Origin: Hyphomicrobiales bacterium
GTDB lineage: Bacteria; Pseudomonadota; Alphaproteobacteria; Rhizobiales; Rhizobiaceae
Direction of reading: 5' to 3'
DNA length: 64,000 bases
Assembly: GCA_900472175.1 (NCBI GenBank)
Contig: UCHD01000002.1
Span: 109,986-173,985, forward strand
How positions within the stretch are numbered: position 1 is the stretch's first letter; each line of letters opens with the position of its first letter. Below the pieces are notes generated by a model. The model saw only the letters and a list, made by a program, of their open reading frames with translations, was not told where the DNA came from and did not search any database. This document shows positions 5,183-27,896 of the stretch, one piece after another. A program made the position numbers and the translations under genes.

Positions 5183-5338
5183 ATCGAAGCAATGCACCTC
5201 CTCCCGCAGAGCTTCGATATGTAAGCGGCCTCACTCCTCCTCCCAGAGGGCGCTTGCGGAATGGCAACACTCCTCCTCCCAGTTGCCATTCGGTTCTATT
5301 CGAAAGCCTGCCGCACCTCCTCCCGCGGCAGGCTTTTT
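5183..5338 (+). ncRNA. Four-hairpin sRNA with CCTCCTCCC loops (alpha-r14 / cuckoo-type)
   Basis: Four consecutive hairpins each expose the same pyrimidine motif in the loop. Hairpin 1: ATCGAAGC (5183-5190) with GCTTCGAT (5211-5218). Hairpin 2: GTAAGCG (5221-5227) with CGCTTGC (5251-5257). Hairpin 3: GAATGGCAAC (5259-5268) with GTTGCCATTC (5282-5291). Hairpin 4: AAAGCCTGCCGC (5303-5314) with GCGGCAGGCTTT (5325-5336), running into a T stretch, so it doubles as the terminator. Every loop carries CCTCCTCCC, complementary to Shine-Dalgarno sequences. This is the signature of the alphaproteobacterial CUCCUCCC (cuckoo) small RNAs, which include the rhizobial alpha-r14 family. The start point is inferred; TATATT at 5171-5176 could be a -10 element. 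Family assignment is from memory of the motif; the structure is seen directly. Confidence 0.85.
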
Positions 5339-5435
5339 CGATTCTGGGCCTCTGTTTCTTAGTCTCTCATACCAAATAAAAAAAACCGCCGCGAAGCATG
5401 ACCTCGCGACGGCTCGGGCTGTTTATGCGTTTCGA

Positions 5436-6446
5436 TCAGCGCAGTGGGGGTGCGTAGACCAGGCCGCCATGGTTCCACAGGTTGTTCAGGCCACGCTCGA
5501 TCTTCAGCGGGCTGTCCTTGCCGAGGTGCCGTTCAAACACTTCGCCATAGTTGCCGACAGCCGAGATGGCCTGGAAAGCCCATTTCGGATCGAGGCCGAA
5601 GTTCTTGGAGATGGCACCGTCTGCACCCAGGAAGCGCTTCTGCGCCACGGTGCCATCTTCCGCCGTTTTGGCGGCATTTTCCTTGGTGATGCCCAATTCT
5701 TCCGCCTCGATCAGCGCGAACAGGGTCCAGCGAACGATCTTGAACCACTGCTCGTCGCCCTGGCGGACGGCCGGTCCAAGCGGCTCCTTGGAGATCACCT
5801 CGGGCAGGACCATGTAATTGTCCGGATCGGTCAACGTCAGGCGCTGGGCGTAAAGGGCTGAAGCATCCGTCGAATAGACGTCGCAACGACCCGTTCCGAA
5901 AGCCTGCACAGTCTGGTCGGGCTTTTCAAAGGCAATGACGTTGTATTGGATGCCGTTGGCGCTGAAATAGTCGGCCATGTTCTGTTCGGTGGTGGTGCCG
6001 GTTTCGGTGCAGACCGAAGCGCCCGACAGTTCCTTGGCGCTCTTCACGCCGAGATCCTTGCGGATCATGAAGGCCTGGCCGTCATAGTAGTTGGCGCCGA
6101 CGAAGCTCATGCCGAGATCGGTATCGCGTGACAAGGTCCAGGTGGTCTGGCGCGACAGGAGATCGACTTCGCCCGACTGCAGGGCGGCGAAACGCTCCTT
6201 GGTCGACAGCGGCACATATTGCACCTTGCTGGAATCACCGAGCACGGCCGCCGCGACCGCGCGGCAGAAGTCGACGTCGAAGCCTGCCCATTCACCCTTG
6301 TCGTTCGGGCTCGAGAAGCCGAGCACGCCTTGGCTGACGCCGCAGCGCAGTGTGCCGCGTTCGCGGGCAATGTCCAGCGTGCTCGCCTGTGCTGCCGTAC
6401 CCGCCAGCGCCGCTGCAGCAAACAATGCAAGAAGTGTTGATTTCAT
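5436..6446 (-). CDS. ABC transporter periplasmic amino-acid-binding protein (AapJ/BztA-like)
   Basis: 336 residues with a classic signal peptide (cleavage predicted near residue 21, AQA-S). It reads as a polar amino-acid binding protein of the general L-amino acid (AapJ/BztA) type: RGTLRCGVSQGVLGFSSPN near the mature N-terminus, then GFDVDFCRAVAAAVLG. Such proteins deliver substrate to an inner-membrane ABC permease. No permease or ATPase gene is beside it, so it is an orphan that must use a transporter encoded elsewhere. It lies 102 bp downstream of the three-domain kinase/aminotransferase gene on the same strand, with a strong ribosome site (GGAGGAGG). It may therefore be co-expressed and supply that enzyme's substrate (inference). 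Confidence 0.9.
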   Translation of the reverse strand: MKSTLLALFAAAALAGTAAQASTLDIARERGTLRCGVSQGVLGFSSPNDKGEWAGFDVDFCRAVAAAVLGDSSKVQYVPLSTKERFAALQSGEVDLLSRQTTWTLSRDTDLGMSFVGANYYDGQAFMIRKDLGVKSAKELSGASVCTETGTTTEQNMADYFSANGIQYNVIAFEKPDQTVQAFGTGRCDVYSTDASALYAQRLTLTDPDNYMVLPEVISKEPLGPAVRQGDEQWFKIVRWTLFALIEAEELGITKENAAKTAEDGTVAQKRFLGADGAISKNFGLDPKWAFQAISAVGNYGEVFERHLGKDSPLKIERGLNNLWNHGGLVYAPPLR

Positions 6447-6548: not shown

Positions 6549-9500
6549 TTAGTCCCGGGCCGTGACCGCCTCGAATGTTTCCTCGAGTACGGACAGCAGA
6601 TGGTCCGCATCCCGTTTCGAGAAGATCATCGGCGGGCGCATTTTCAGCACGTTGTCATGTGGCCCTTCGGTGCCCATCAACACACCGCGTTGCCGTGCGC
6701 CGTTCGAGACTGCGCGGGCGAAATCCGTCGCTGGTGCCTTGGTCTTGCGGTCGGTAACCAGCTCGATGCCGAGGAAAAGCCCCATGCCGCGCACGTCGCC
6801 GATCAGCTCGTAACGTTCCTGCATCGCCCGGAAACCGGCCATCAGGTAGTTGCCGATCTGAAGGGCATTGCCACGCAGGTTCTGGCCCTCGATGACATCG
6901 AGCACGGCGAGACCGACAGCGCAGGAAACCGGGTTGCCGCCGAACGTGTTGAAATATTCCATGCCGTTGTTGAAGCTATCGGCGATCTCGCGGGTGGTCA
7001 CGACAGCGGCCAGCGGATGGCCGTCACCGATCGGCTTGCCCATGGTGACGATGTCCGGCACGACGCCCTGCTCCTCGAAGGCCCACCAGTGGCTGCCCAC
7101 CCGGCCGAAGCCGACCTGAACTTCGTCGGCAATGCAGACACCACCGGCGTCGCGCACCATGCGATAGACGTCCTTGAGGTAACCTTCCGGCAGGAATACT
7201 TGGCCGGCAACGCTTGGGATCGACTCGGCGATGAAGAAGCCCGGACCTTCGCCCTTTGCCTGCATCTGCGCGATCAGCTCAGCGACGCTTTCGGCATAAC
7301 GCTTGCCGTGTTCCTCGATCGCCCATTCGGCAGGGGCGTGATAACTGTCGGGAACGAGGGCCACATGGACATGCGGCTTCTTCTCCTTGCCGCCCTTGCG
7401 GCGGAACTTGTAGGGGCTGATCTCGATCAGTTCCTGCGTCGTGCCGTGATAGGCCCAGTCGAGCACGATGGCGTTTTCGCGGCCGGTATGGGCGCGCATC
7501 ATCCGCAGCGCCAGGCTGTTGGCTTCCGAGCCGCTGTTGACGAAACCGGCGACCGTCAGTTCCTTCGGTAATGTCGCGGTCAGCCGCTCGGCATAGGCAA
7601 CGATATTGTCATGCAGGTAACGCGTATTGGTGTTCAGCGTCGCCGCCTGTCGCGCCATCGCTTCGACCACGGCCGGATGCGCATGGCCGATATGGCAGAC
7701 ATTGTTGAAGCAATCGAGATAGGCGCGGCCGCTGTCATCAATCAGCCAGACACCGTCGCCGCGCACGAACTTGATCGGCTTGTCGTAGGAAATCGACAGG
7801 TTGGGAACCAGAAGCTCCTTGCGCAGCGTGACGATCTCCTCATGCGATCGCCCGGTCTTTTCGTAAAATTCCGGGGCAATACCGGCAAAGGCATTGGCAT
7901 CGGGGAACAGCTCGGCCCAGACGTCGAGATAGCGCTCTTCGCCGACGCCAAGGATTTCGGTGGCGGAAAGCCGGGTGTCGATGGACAGCTGCAGGTGCAG
8001 GTGGGGCGCCCAGCCTCCGTTTTCCGCAGGCGCTCCCATTTCGCCGACCAGCGCACCGGCGTCCAGACGGTCGCCCGCCTTCAAACGCCCGAGCGCCTCA
8101 TGGGCAAGATGGCCCCACAGGCTGATGAAGGCCGGGCAGCCCTCGGGTTCATGGCGAAGGGCGATCAGGCAGCCGTACCCGAGCGGATCCGGCTCGATCT
8201 CGACACTGACGACCGTGGCAGCGATCGGCGTGTAGAGCTTGGTGCCCGCAGCCATGAACAGGTCAAGGCCGAGATGGCGGATGCGGCGGGTCTTTTCAAT
8301 CAGCCGCGAGACGAACATGTCGCCGGAATAGACGGTGCGCGCCTCGCCCCATGGGCCGATGCCGAGATCGACGCCATGGTCTGCGCAATAGGATTCCCAG
8401 ATCGCCTGCGCCTCGTCCGGCTGTTCGCCGGCCGACTTGACCGTCATCGGATGCTGCGGATCGCCATAGGGAACGAGTGCTGCCGGATAAGTTGCTGCCG
8501 GGCGGTCGAGCAGCGGATGAAACGTCTTGCGGTTGGCCTCGATCCAATTCGTGACGGCGCGCGTGCCGGGCGTTGCCTCAAAACCGCAGGCCTGCCGCAG
8601 GATCGCGGTGGCGAACTGCCGGTTCATCGCATCGAGCTTGCGCAGCAGCGTCCAGGCCGGCTTCTCGCTGATGGCGAGATAGGGATTGCCGCCGGTATGG
8701 GCATGGCGCGATGCCGAGATCGTCACCGAGGTAACGAGCCGCATGGCGATGAGGTCGAACAGAAGATCGACTTCCTCTTCGAGCAGCGGATATTCCGCAT
8801 GGAAACCGCGGGCGATGGCCGCGGCCGCACCGATCGGATCGGCATGGTCGAGCCCGGCATAGGCGGCGGCAATCGCCACTTCAGCAATGACGGGCGCATA
8901 GAGCGCGTCGCCAAGATCGATCAGGCCGGCAATCTGGTCATGATCATTTTCCGCGACCAGCACGTTCCAGTCATTGGCATCGTTGTGAATGACGGTTGAG
9001 CGCAGTTTCGGCAGCTTCGGTTCAACGGTTGTTTCGAAACGGGCAAGGAAGCGTTGCAGCAGGGCACGGTCGTCGGCATTAGCAATATGCTGCAAGCGGC
9101 TGGCAGAGCGTCCGGCATTGCGGATGTTCCATTCGAGATCGCGCAGCGCGCCGGGGTGCATAAAGCCCTGCAAGGCGGTATCGAAGCGGCCAAGCAGCCG
9201 CCCGAGTGATGTCAGCGCCTCTTCGCTGCGGGCGGACTGTGCCAACGGCGTGCCCGGCACCCAGCCGACGAGGCGAAGCAGGTGGCGCACGCCATGGACG
9301 CTTGTCGTCTCGCCAAGGCTCGCGCCGGAAATCGTCGGGCGGATATGCGGAACGGGCAGGCCGGGCGCGTGTTCGCCGACATGGCTCAGAAGCGCCGTCT
9401 GGAAATCGCTTTCGACCGGCGGCTCGGCGGCGTTGATGATCTTGAGGATGTAAATCCCGCCGCTGCTGGCCGTCACCTTGAAATTCTGGTCGCGTTCGCT

Positions 9501-9602
9501 GTCGAGCGGCGACAGCGAACCGTCGAGGCCATAGTGCTCGGCCAGCAGGCGCTGTGCGTCTTCGATGGAAAAATCCGGGGTGGTCTTCAGCATATCGGTC
9601 AT
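6549..9602 (-). CDS. Three-domain protein: APH-type kinase, M23/LytM-like domain, class III aminotransferase/phospholyase
   Basis: About 1017 residues. Start chosen at the ATG preceded by GAGGA; the reading frame is open further upstream but has no comparable ribosome site. Domain 1 (about 1-330) is an aminoglycoside-phosphotransferase/homoserine-kinase-like kinase with the catalytic loop HNDANDWNV (His206, Asp208) and a DLGDAL metal site. Domain 2 (about 410-560) resembles zinc peptidase M23/LytM: HLGLD (His443, Asp447) and HLHL (His534, His536). Domain 3 (about 590-1017) is a fold-type I PLP aminotransferase with DEVQVGFGR and the PLP lysine in MGKPIGDGH (about Lys856). Hydroxylysine kinase (AGPHD1) and the phospholyases AGXT2L1/2 act in sequence, so kinase plus phospholyase in one chain suggests phosphorylation then elimination of an amino alcohol. 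There is no signal peptide, so the M23-like part is cytoplasmic. The substrate is unknown. Confidence 0.88.
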
Positions 9603-9652
9603 GATGGGTCCTCGTCTGCTTTCAGATTTGCACGGGTGGCCAAACCATGCAC

Positions 9653-9667
9653 CCGGCAATATGCCGG
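9653..9667. promoter_or_regulatory. Palindrome in the divergent promoter region, candidate Lrp-type operator
   Basis: CCGGCA-ATA-TGCCGG is a perfect 6-bp inverted repeat in the 127-bp gap between the divergent kinase/aminotransferase and Lrp-type regulator genes; a further CACCGGCATTATG follows. Regulators of the Lrp family usually bind such sites next to their own divergent target. The location supports this but binding is inference. Confidence 0.4.
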
Positions 9668-9729
9668 TTGCACCGGCATTATGTTTATAATAACCGTCAT
9701 CTTGTCGGCACTTTGAAAGGCGCACACTC

Positions 9730-10164
9730 ATGCAGGATACAGATGCGATCGACCGGACGATCCTCAGCATCCTGTCGCGGGAAGCGCGCATCCCGATGAA
9801 GTCGCTTGCCGGCCGCATCGGCCTGTCCAGAAGCGCAACGACCGAGCGGGTCAACCGGCTGGAAAAGGCCGGGATCATTCGCGGCTACCGGGCCGATATC
9901 GGCCAGCTGGACGAGGATCAGGTGCATGCGTTCCTGCTTTTGACGCTGAAGAAAACGCCGTCGATCGGCGTGCTCGACCGGCTGGCTGGCTTCTCCTCCG
10001 TGCGCAAGGTATCGTCTGTCAGCGGCCAGCTTGATCTTGTCGTTGAAGTCCAGGTCGGATCGATCAATGCGCTGAACGAACTCAGGAACGAGGTGGCGAC
10101 GATGGAGAATGTCGATGACCTGACGACATCGATTGTGCTGCGCCGCGACATCGAACGCAGCTGA
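9730..10164 (+). CDS. Lrp/AsnC-family transcriptional regulator
   Basis: 144 residues, the standard Lrp/AsnC size. An N-terminal winged helix-turn-helix (about 5-60; MKSLAGRIGLSRSATTERVN) is followed by a C-terminal RAM/ligand-sensing alpha-beta domain containing the SGQLDLVVEVQ region. Divergent from the kinase-M23-aminotransferase gene with 127 bp between the starts. The usual arrangement is a local activator or repressor that senses an amino acid, and here it probably controls uptake and breakdown of the substrate of its neighbours. Confidence 0.92.
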   Translation: MQDTDAIDRTILSILSREARIPMKSLAGRIGLSRSATTERVNRLEKAGIIRGYRADIGQLDEDQVHAFLLLTLKKTPSIGVLDRLAGFSSVRKVSSVSGQLDLVVEVQVGSINALNELRNEVATMENVDDLTTSIVLRRDIERS

Positions 10165-10559
10165 GCCGCGCTTGACTTTGCTGCGGATGCTCACACAATG
10201 AAGTCGAGGAAAATACAGTGTTTGCTGCCTTCTCTTGCCCTGATTGATGCAAGAGAAGAGGCGCTTGCCGCCGGGCCAACCGTGTTTCACTCCAAAACTG
10301 TTCCCCGAAAAATTTGAAAGTCTTTCGTTGAGCCCGTCGAAATGGACGGCTAGCGATCCGCCGCGCGAAAACGCACAATCACCAAACCGTGAATGAGACA
10401 TCCGGCCTGCCGCAATGGCAGCCGGATACTGATCGGGCAGGGGCCCTGACAAGTCATGATGGCTTGAAGATCGGTACAGTGTGGTTGGTCGCCAGAGGAG
10501 AAGGCGGTCCTGCCAGTGGCATGCGCCGGGAATGGATTTTTCCGGCCAAGGGAGGAAAT
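10165..10559 (+). other. 395-bp leader/intergenic region before the purine permease, with a strong hairpin
   Basis: No convincing gene. The permease frame is open back to 10389, but the strong ribosome site and family length put the start at 10560. The region contains TTTGAAAGT at 10313-10321, also found before two other purine gene groups, and a stable hairpin at 10400-10427: ATCCGG (C bulge) CTGCC, loop GCAAT, GGCAG CCGGAT. A long leader with stable structure before a nucleobase permease is compatible with a riboswitch or attenuator, but I cannot match it to a known class. Confidence 0.45.
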
Positions 10560-11852
10560 ATGTTTGAACGGCTCTTCAAGCTGAGTGAGCACAATACGAC
10601 GATCCGCACCGAACTGGTTGCGGGCGTCACGACATTTCTCACAATGTCGTACATCATCTTCGTCAATCCGGATATTCTGTCGACCACCGGCATGGACCGC
10701 GACGCCATTTTCGTCGCGACCTGTCTCGCCGCAGCACTCGGCTCGATCATCATGGCGCTGGTCGCTAACTGGCCGATCGGTATGGCGCCTGGTATGGGCC
10801 TCAATGCCTTCTTCGCTTTCACGGTCGTTGCCGCCCTCGGCTTCACCTGGCAGCAGGCGCTCGGCGCCGTCTTCATCTCGGGCCTGATCTTCCTCTTCCT
10901 GACGGTGACGGGGATCCGCAGTTGGTTGATTCAGGGCATTCCGCATTCGCTGCGCAGCGCGATCGCCACCGGTATCGGCCTTTTTCTCGGCATCATCGCG
11001 CTGAAGAATGCCGGTATCGTCGTCGATAATCCGGCAACGCTCGTCGGCCTCGGCAGCCTCAAGGCCACCGGTCCGCTGCTGGCGATCTTCGGCTTCTTCG
11101 TCATTGCGGTGCTCGATGCCCTGAAAATTCGCGGTGCGATCCTGATCGGTATTCTGGCCGTCACCGTGCTCTCGTGGATCACCGGCGTCAGCCAGTTCCA
11201 GGGCGTCGTTTCGATGCCGCCCAGCATGGCGCCGACCTTCCTGCAGCTCGATATCGTCGGTGCGCTGCATGGTGGCCTAGTCCACGTCATCCTCGTCTTT
11301 GTTCTCGTCGAAGTGTTCGACGCGACGGGCACGCTGATCGGTGTCGCCAAGCGCGCCAACCTCATCCAGGAAGGCAAGCCGAGCCGCCTCGGCCGCGCGC
11401 TTCTCGCCGATAGCACCGCCATCGTTGCGGGCTCGCTGATGGGTACCAGCAGCACCACGGCCTATGTCGAAAGCGCATCCGGCGTTCAGGCCGGCGGCCG
11501 TACCGGTCTGACGGCTCTGGTCATTGCCTTGCTGTTCCTCGCCTCGCTGTTCATCTCGCCGCTGGCGGCCTCGGTGCCTACGTATGCAACAGCCCCGGCT
11601 CTGCTCTATGTCGCCGGCCTGATGATGCGCGAACTGACCGAAGTCGACTGGGAAGACCTGACCGAAGCCGCACCGGCAGCACTGACGGCCCTTGCCATGC
11701 CCTTCACCTACTCGATCGCCAACGGTCTTGCCTTCGGCTTCATCAGCTACGTCGTCCTGAAGGCGTTCACCGGCAAATGGCGCGCCATCCATCCGGCAAC
11801 CCTGATCGTCGCCGTCCTGTTCGTCATCCGCTTCGCGTTCTTCGCGGAATAA
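10560..11852 (+). CDS. NCS2-family purine (adenine/guanine/hypoxanthine) permease, AzgA-like
   Basis: 430 residues. Start chosen at the ATG after AGGGAGGAA. A polytopic membrane protein of the AzgA/PbuG branch of nucleobase-cation symporters: opening MFERLFKLSEHNTTIRTE, then GVTTFLTMSYIIFVNP, GMGLNAFFAF, VEVFDATGTLIGVAKRA and GTSSTTAYVESASGVQAGG, all typical of this branch. It imports purine bases by proton symport and so would feed the guanine deaminase and xanthine dehydrogenase encoded further along. It stands alone as a single gene with its own long leader. Confidence 0.92.
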   Translation: MFERLFKLSEHNTTIRTELVAGVTTFLTMSYIIFVNPDILSTTGMDRDAIFVATCLAAALGSIIMALVANWPIGMAPGMGLNAFFAFTVVAALGFTWQQALGAVFISGLIFLFLTVTGIRSWLIQGIPHSLRSAIATGIGLFLGIIALKNAGIVVDNPATLVGLGSLKATGPLLAIFGFFVIAVLDALKIRGAILIGILAVTVLSWITGVSQFQGVVSMPPSMAPTFLQLDIVGALHGGLVHVILVFVLVEVFDATGTLIGVAKRANLIQEGKPSRLGRALLADSTAIVAGSLMGTSSTTAYVESASGVQAGGRTGLTALVIALLFLASLFISPLAASVPTYATAPALLYVAGLMMRELTEVDWEDLTEAAPAALTALAMPFTYSIANGLAFGFISYVVLKAFTGKWRAIHPATLIVAVLFVIRFAFFAE

Positions 11853-26463: not shown

Positions 26464-26613
26464 TCAACTTCGTGGCATCAAGGCCAGTTCCGGTGGCTGG
26501 ACTCCAGCGCGTTCGATTGTTAGAAACACCCCATATGCTTCGCAGAAGCCCGGCACGGACGACCCTGCCGCGATCCTATAGTTGGGGACGGCCCCTTGTG
26601 AGGTTCACAAGTC

Positions 26614-27805: not shown

Positions 27806-27896
27806 ATATGTCTATCAGACCCCTGCGCAGGACGACCTGCGCCTCGACCATTCCGGGGACGGCCCCGCATCTCATTCGTGAGTGCAGGAGCCGCCC

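What the first reader, a model, noticed from the sequence alone, without database searches (positions are those of the whole stretch)
6549..9602. Kinase, M23-like domain and PLP phospholyase/aminotransferase fused in one cytoplasmic protein
The kinase and class III aminotransferase halves resemble hydroxylysine kinase (AGPHD1) and ethanolamine-phosphate/phosphohydroxylysine phospholyases. An M23/LytM-like metal motif (HLGLD, HLHL) sits between them although the protein lacks a signal peptide. The middle domain may be a scaffold, a metal-dependent enzyme on an unusual substrate, or a vestige. With an orphan amino-acid binding protein downstream and an Lrp regulator divergent, the locus looks like a self-contained uptake-and-breakdown unit for an unknown amino alcohol.
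Basis: partly seen in the sequence, partly recalled or inferred. Interest (0 to 1): 0.75.

Follow-up and report, generated by a model that had tools for sequence, protein, structure and literature searches.

The report
Three-in-one amino-alcohol breakdown enzyme
A rhizobium-like bacterium encodes one large protein that joins a kinase, an apparently intact zinc domain of the cell-wall-peptidase kind and a vitamin-B6 phospho-lyase, probably to break down an amino alcohol inside the cell; the protein family is already in databases, but what its zinc domain does is unknown.

Summary
One 1017-aa protein (9602-6552, minus strand) holds an APH-type kinase, a Peptidase_M23 domain and a class III PLP domain, with no evident signal peptide. 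The architecture is not new: it matches NCBIfam NF004799 (PRK06148, 'hypothetical protein') over its whole length. The PLP domain is closest in the PDB to human ethanolamine-phosphate phospho-lyase (50% identity). In 28 of 28 relatives' loci from one phylum-wide search an APH-type kinase is fused to, or encoded beside, the lyase, which supports sequential action on one amino alcohol. The M23 domain is no vestige: it models as a LytM/lysostaphin-type fold, and its five metal/catalytic positions are the same in 25 of 25 sequences (query included), down to 35% identity. It is dispensable for the kinase-lyase pair: a sister family (PRK06149, one copy about 20 kb away in this genome) has lost the site, and kinase-lyase fusions without M23 exist. 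'Self-contained uptake unit' is overstated: no ABC permease lies beside the binding protein. Substrate is unproven. My boldest reading is that M23 is a cytosolic amidase freeing the amine of an N-acylated or gamma-glutamylated amino alcohol. It rests on the conserved site and a shared gene cluster; glutamine-synthetase genes alone show no enrichment.

The parts
6549..9602 (-). Gene for the kinase / M23 / class III PLP fusion protein, 1017 aa (stop at 6549-6551)
   Evidence: NF004799 full length, 1660.5 bits against cut-off 1128
8583..9542 (-). Kinase half, residues about 21-340 (Pfam APH 31-272); K54, H206, D208, N213, D229, D232
   Evidence: K54, D208, N213, D229, D232 invariant among 23 kinase-bearing sequences; H206 is Y in L162
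7968..8294 (-). M23 domain, residues 437-545; H443, D447, H498, H534, H536
   Evidence: model mbc3e7db0e045, Foldseek matches to EnpA, lysostaphin, LytM
6573..7838 (-). PLP phospho-lyase half, residues about 589-1010; D826, Q829, K856
9603..9729 (.). Divergent promoter region; imperfect inverted repeat ATGCCGGTGCAACCGGCAT (9661-9679, read on minus), candidate Lrp operator
   Evidence: within 3 mismatches in 36 of 80 relatives' upstream stretches; a 15-base core within 2 mismatches in 47 of 80; no shuffled control was run
9730..10164 (+). Divergent Lrp/AsnC-family regulator, 144 aa
   Evidence: adjacent and divergent in 77 of 80 near relatives
5436..6446 (-). Family-3 solute-binding protein, 336 aa, downstream on the same strand; no ABC permease adjacent
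   Evidence: adjacent on the same strand in 46 of 80 near relatives

Best explanation
A cytosolic catabolic enzyme of the PRK06148 family. The APH-type kinase phosphorylates the hydroxyl of an amino alcohol (or hydroxylated amino acid) with ATP. The class III PLP domain then binds the neighbouring amine and eliminates phosphate, giving an aldehyde or ketone, ammonia and phosphate, as the ethanolamine-phosphate and phosphohydroxylysine lyases do. The M23 domain is a folded, metal-competent hydrolase-type domain held under selection in this family; I think it hydrolyses an amide bond that masks the amine in some substrates. Expression is probably governed by the divergent Lrp regulator and uptake helped by an amino-acid-type binding protein. 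Shown by sequence or model: the domains, their conserved catalytic positions, the M23 fold, the linkage of kinase and lyase. Inferred: both activities, the shared substrate, M23 catalysis, Lrp control, uptake.
For: PDB and Foldseek first hits are two solved phospho-lyases, 6tor (50% identity) and 5g4i (42%). An APH-type kinase is fused or adjacent in 28 of 28 loci read (19 fused, 9 adjacent or overlapping; two of the nine by Pfam), and adjacent in further pairs in both orders. M23 site: 5 of 5 positions invariant in 25 sequences (query and 24 others at 35-80% identity), where 18 of 109 domain columns are invariant (hypergeometric p 7e-5). The first 30 of 50 listed Foldseek rows for the M23 model are M23/LytM structures by title or from recall, except rank 6, a phage particle that I did not check. 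Lrp adjacent in 77 of 80. Amino-acid-type ABC transporter genes lie beside several members.
Against: No measured activity was found for any member. PRK06149 proteins keep kinase and lyase with a broken M23 site, and other kinase-lyase fusions lack M23, so M23 is not needed for the core reaction. Two proteins have M23 and lyase but no kinase (L122, L132), and I recognised no kinase gene beside them. The full-length model has pLDDT below 50 at 304-310, 581-640, 794-802, 831-834, 856-863 and 879-889, much of it around the PLP site, so geometry there is untested. Class III domains are mostly transaminases; the lyase reaction is inferred from nearest relatives.
Confidence: 0.72

Rival explanations
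1. The M23 domain is structural: a metal-binding scaffold that spaces kinase and lyase or channels the phospho-intermediate, without hydrolysing anything.
For: Sister family PRK06149 keeps a shorter middle region while losing site residues. The domain sits between the two enzymes. Non-catalytic LytM domains exist (EnvC and DipM, both among the Foldseek rows; non-catalytic from recall).
Against: All five positions, both catalytic-type histidines (H498, H534) included, are invariant in 25 of 25 sequences. Kinase-lyase fusions exist without any spacer domain.
Confidence: 0.35
2. The substrate is 5-hydroxylysine itself (kinase, then phosphohydroxylysine phospho-lyase), as in vertebrates.
For: Amino-acid-type binding protein downstream; amino-acid-type ABC genes beside other members; the lyase class includes the phosphohydroxylysine enzyme (PMC9283133, passage seen).
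Against: I recognised by eye no aminoadipate-semialdehyde gene recurring among the neighbours read. Human phosphohydroxylysine lyase and hydroxylysine kinase sequences were not at hand for comparison.
Confidence: 0.25
3. The substrate is ethanolamine or a small relative such as 1-aminopropan-2-ol, giving acetaldehyde or propionaldehyde.
For: Closest solved structure is ethanolamine-phosphate phospho-lyase. An amino-alcohol kinase plus phospho-lyase route was described enzymatically in Pseudomonas and Erwinia in the 1970s (recalled; the search listed no paper).
Against: I recognised by eye no aldehyde dehydrogenase recurring beside the gene. Transport neighbours are of amino-acid type.
Confidence: 0.25
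4. The PLP domain is an ordinary transaminase and the kinase acts on something else.
For: A vast majority of characterised class III enzymes are transaminases (PMC8154272, passage seen); annotated relatives are called aminotransferase.
Against: It scores far higher with phospho-lyases (466 and 349 bits) than with the next PDB entries (197 bits or less), and the kinase link recurs.
Confidence: 0.1

Closest known systems
NCBIfam NF004799 / PRK06148 ('hypothetical protein')
   Same: Full-length match, residues 1-1015, 1660.5 bits against a cut-off of 1128
   Different: Nothing structural that I saw; the family has no assigned function
NCBIfam NF004800 / PRK06149 ('aminotransferase')
   Same: Same kinase and PLP ends (677.6 bits, below its cut-off of 973); one member lies at G000:C16:93562-96477 of this genome
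   Different: In 6 of 6 rows the positions of H443, H534 and H536 hold other residues or a gap; D447 and H498 are kept in 4 of 6. Two of these six were scanned with Pfam and show no M23 match
Human ethanolamine-phosphate phospho-lyase ETNPPL/AGXT2L1 (PDB 6tor)
   Same: PLP domain, 50% identity over 411 columns
   Different: Deposited chain is the lyase alone (499 aa)
Arthrobacter phospho-lyase A1RDF1 (PDB 5g4i)
   Same: PLP domain, 42% identity
   Different: Deposited chain is the lyase alone (446 aa); lower similarity
Hydroxylysine kinase AGPHD1/HYKK
   Same: Said in the 2012 paper to be a homologue of bacterial kinases fused to lyases (recalled; paper not held)
   Different: Not compared here: no sequence at hand
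M23 peptidases LytM, lysostaphin, EnpA
   Same: Fold and five site residues
   Different: Those act on cell wall outside the cytosol (recalled); this domain has no evident export signal, lies between two metabolic enzymes, and has further invariant residues R440, H484, N528, W531 in its family

Membership tests
PRK06148 / NF004799 | Score over the curated cut-off across the full length | tested here: met
   1660.5 against 1128, residues 1-1015
Class III PLP phospho-lyase (ethanolamine-phosphate / phosphohydroxylysine type) | Closest relatives are phospho-lyases rather than transaminases | tested here: met
   6tor 466 and 5g4i 349 bits, next 197 bits
Class III PLP phospho-lyase (ethanolamine-phosphate / phosphohydroxylysine type) | PLP lysine and Asp kept | tested here: met
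   K856 and D826 in 104 of 104 aligned relatives
Class III PLP phospho-lyase (ethanolamine-phosphate / phosphohydroxylysine type) | Releases phosphate and ammonia from an amino-alcohol phosphate | not testable with these tools
   needs an assay
APH-type small-molecule kinase | Catalytic HxDxxxxN and DxxD motif positions and ATP-site lysine | tested here: met
   all six positions kept in 103 of 103 kinase-bearing relatives; L162 has Y at H206, and L175's kinase lies on another ORF so its row does not align there
Hydroxylysine kinase | Orthology to AGPHD1 and activity on hydroxylysine | not tested
   no AGPHD1 sequence at hand; kinase half alone has no PDB match at E 0.01
Peptidase family M23 | HxxxD and HxH zinc ligands and catalytic histidines in an M23 fold | tested here: met
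   (which residues are ligands and which catalytic is recalled from LytM)
Peptidase family M23 | Hydrolyses a peptide/amide bond with bound zinc | not testable with these tools
   no coordinates or metal placement are given by the model tool
Self-contained uptake-and-breakdown unit | Binding protein with its permease and ATPase in the unit | tested here: not met
   no ABC permease gene called beside 5439-6446; the one permease near by (10389-11849) is of the Xan_ur_permease family

The most novel reading that the evidence does not exclude
A cell-wall-peptidase fold recruited to the cytosol as a small-molecule amidase: the M23 domain frees the amine of an N-acylated (for example gamma-glutamyl) amino alcohol so that kinase and phospho-lyase can finish its breakdown in one polypeptide. 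Some members share a gene cluster with a glutamine-synthetase-like ligase, an N-formylglutamate-amidohydrolase-like enzyme, an isochorismatase-family hydrolase and a branched-chain-type ABC transporter, which could supply and process such conjugates.
Probability: 0.22. Interest if true: 0.65.

Novelty: new member of a known kind. Interest (0 to 1): 0.4.

Why it matters
The fusion is a ready clue to an unassigned catabolic route found in many Alphaproteobacteria. M23 enzymes are known as extracellular wall hydrolases (established knowledge, recalled); one with a fully conserved site inside a metabolic enzyme would be a new role for the fold. A protein with separable domains makes the question directly testable.

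Tried and rejected
Fusion artefact or annotation error: rejected, since the same order is found in many genomes. M23 as vestige: rejected for this family, though PRK06149 has lost the site.

Substrate from neighbours: not settled. Lrp and the binding protein recur. I recognised by eye no aldehyde dehydrogenase or aminoadipate gene recurring, but gene calls there rest on ORF length and GC position, only some genes were run against Pfam, and the clustering was polluted by antisense ORFs and not used.

Glutamine-synthetase link: the Paracoccus protein hits 7 of 94 M23-bearing loci against 1 of 20 others; the protein from L136 hits 8 of 94 against 1 of 20. By count that is no enrichment; only the shared cluster is suggestive. 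The 94 are 80 near relatives, 11 remote loci, two plasmid loci and the window's own; some are shorter than 19 kb.

The site test leaves out PRK06149-type rows, which I had already seen to lack the site. They are set apart independently by scoring over the NF004800 cut-off (6 rows) and by their own clade, but the set was chosen knowing this.

Octopamine idea for the lyase-kinase pair near hpa genes in Rhizobium beringeri: one locus, another subfamily, not pursued.

Literature: ten searches of the held library, of which I saw only the listings (one search listed 20 of 141, one search listed 40 of 97) and then passages of seven papers. None that I saw describes a bacterial kinase-M23-lyase protein. 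The 2012 paper by Veiga-da-Cunha et al. is not held. From recall, its abstract says that bacterial homologues form bi- or trifunctional proteins with an APH-type kinase; PMC12138971 has it in its reference list next to gene-fusion references and says that fusions can reveal functions of uncharacterised partners (passages).

Full report
Observation. The window gene at 9602-6549 (minus strand) encodes 1017 aa. Pfam finds APH at 31-272, Peptidase_M23 at 443-542 and Aminotran_3 at 609-1009, all over the gathering score. The whole protein matches NCBIfam NF004799 (PRK06148, 'hypothetical protein', 1660.5 bits; cut-off 1128) and less well NF004800 (PRK06149, 'aminotransferase', 677.6 bits; cut-off 973). 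So the architecture is catalogued, without a function.

PLP half. The best solved relatives are 6tor, human ethanolamine-phosphate phospho-lyase (466 bits), and 5g4i, an Arthrobacter phospho-lyase (349 bits); the next is 197 bits. Foldseek on the full-length model agrees (ranks 1-4; 50% and 42% identity). The model (mean pLDDT 80.8, pTM 0.60) is poor in several stretches around the PLP site, so I rely on sequence there. [quoted passage not shown] PMC8233209, passages).

Kinase half and linkage. Six kinase motif positions are kept in 103 of 103 kinase-bearing relatives. Layouts seen: kinase-M23-lyase (about 1005-1045 aa open frames), kinase-degenerate middle-lyase (about 960-990), kinase-lyase (about 780-925), adjacent kinase and lyase genes in either order, and M23-lyase without kinase (703 and 737 aa). 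In the 28 loci read (those given for the best matches, not all its matches), 9 are kinase-M23-lyase, 7 degenerate, 3 kinase-lyase, 7 have a kinase hit on a neighbouring or overlapping ORF, and 2 (L169, L170), which showed no BLAST hit to the window kinase, have an APH gene directly downstream. Some of these repeat genomes. Repeated fusion and adjacency argue for one shared substrate. The reasoning is not new: from recall, Veiga-da-Cunha et al. 2012 used such bacterial fusions to find the human enzymes (not held).

M23 half. H443, D447, H498, H534 and H536 are all present in 77 of 77 distinct near relatives (of 80; three are identical to other rows). Among 27 other rows, 16 have all five, 6 (PRK06149 type) are degenerate and 5 lack the domain; a few of the 27 come from the same species as near relatives. 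In 25 M23-bearing sequences (query and 24 others, 35-80% identical to it) the five are among 18 invariant columns of 109 (hypergeometric p 7e-5). That test treats columns as exchangeable, ignores relatedness, and its set leaves out the PRK06149 type. Other invariant positions (R440, H484, N528, W531) may mark a substrate pocket. The domain alone models at mean pLDDT 88.2, pTM 0.84 and matches M23 structures such as EnpA, lysostaphin and LytM; by sequence it also finds three M23 entries in the PDB at E 0.01. Metal geometry could not be measured.

History. In a tree of the PLP domain (50 rows, 48 different; three pairs are one protein fetched twice), kinase-M23-lyase rows (24) need 4 changes and are not one clade in any of 200 bootstrap trees; degenerate (6), M23-lyase (2) and kinase-lyase plus split rows (17) each group with full support among them. 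Several of the deeper forks that place these groups are weak (87-91 / 77-90), and the root is a midpoint with a very long outgroup, so direction is uncertain. The simplest reading is an old three-domain protein with losses.

Spread. Over the NF004799 cut-off: 9 of 289 genomes sampled from the class and 10 of 398 from the phylum, the window's genome counted in both.

Neighbourhood. A homologue of the window's Lrp is adjacent and divergent in 77 of 80 near relatives, and the binding protein adjacent downstream in 46 of 80. The intergenic stretch holds a partly conserved inverted repeat (no shuffled control). No ABC permease lies beside the binding protein here; two paralogues elsewhere have one. 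In Sinorhizobium meliloti pSymB a 44%-identical copy follows LacI, binding-protein, permease and short-chain dehydrogenase genes on the same strand, and relatives of these four lie near six Mesorhizobium copies. Glutamine-synthetase hits number 7 of 94 against 1 of 20, no enrichment by count.

Reading. Kinase, then phospho-lyase, on an amino alcohol is the best-supported mechanism. What M23 does is open. Its strict conservation argues for catalysis; its loss in PRK06149 shows it is an extra. An amidase that unmasks the amine fits the chemistry and the amide-related neighbours, but is inference.

Novelty. The protein is a new member of a catalogued, uncharacterised family. The possible surprise is the M23 domain.

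Noticed in passing
G000:C16:93562-96477 (outside the window, about 20 kb from the gene): A PRK06149-type paralogue (980-aa open frame, degenerate middle domain) followed by an amidohydrolase (Amidohydro_3) and ABC transporter genes that look polyamine-type by eye.
   Followed up: partly
window 26551-26595 and 27824-27867, + strand: Two guanidine-II riboswitch matches above the gathering score.
   Followed up: no
window 5217-5340, + strand: Alphaproteobacterial sRNA ar14, 105.5 bits, between the RND-type gene and the binding-protein gene.
   Followed up: no
window 10389-11849, + strand: A Xan_ur_permease-family gene next to the Lrp gene; I did not check whether it is kept in relatives.
   Followed up: no
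L184, 7983-10288: In Rhizobium beringeri a lyase-kinase gene pair sits beside homoprotocatechuate-degradation (hpa) genes and near an APC-family permease; the pair might handle an aromatic amino alcohol such as octopamine.
   Followed up: no
L134, 7592-8644: An asparaginase-II-family gene directly downstream of a remote kinase-M23-lyase gene.
   Followed up: no
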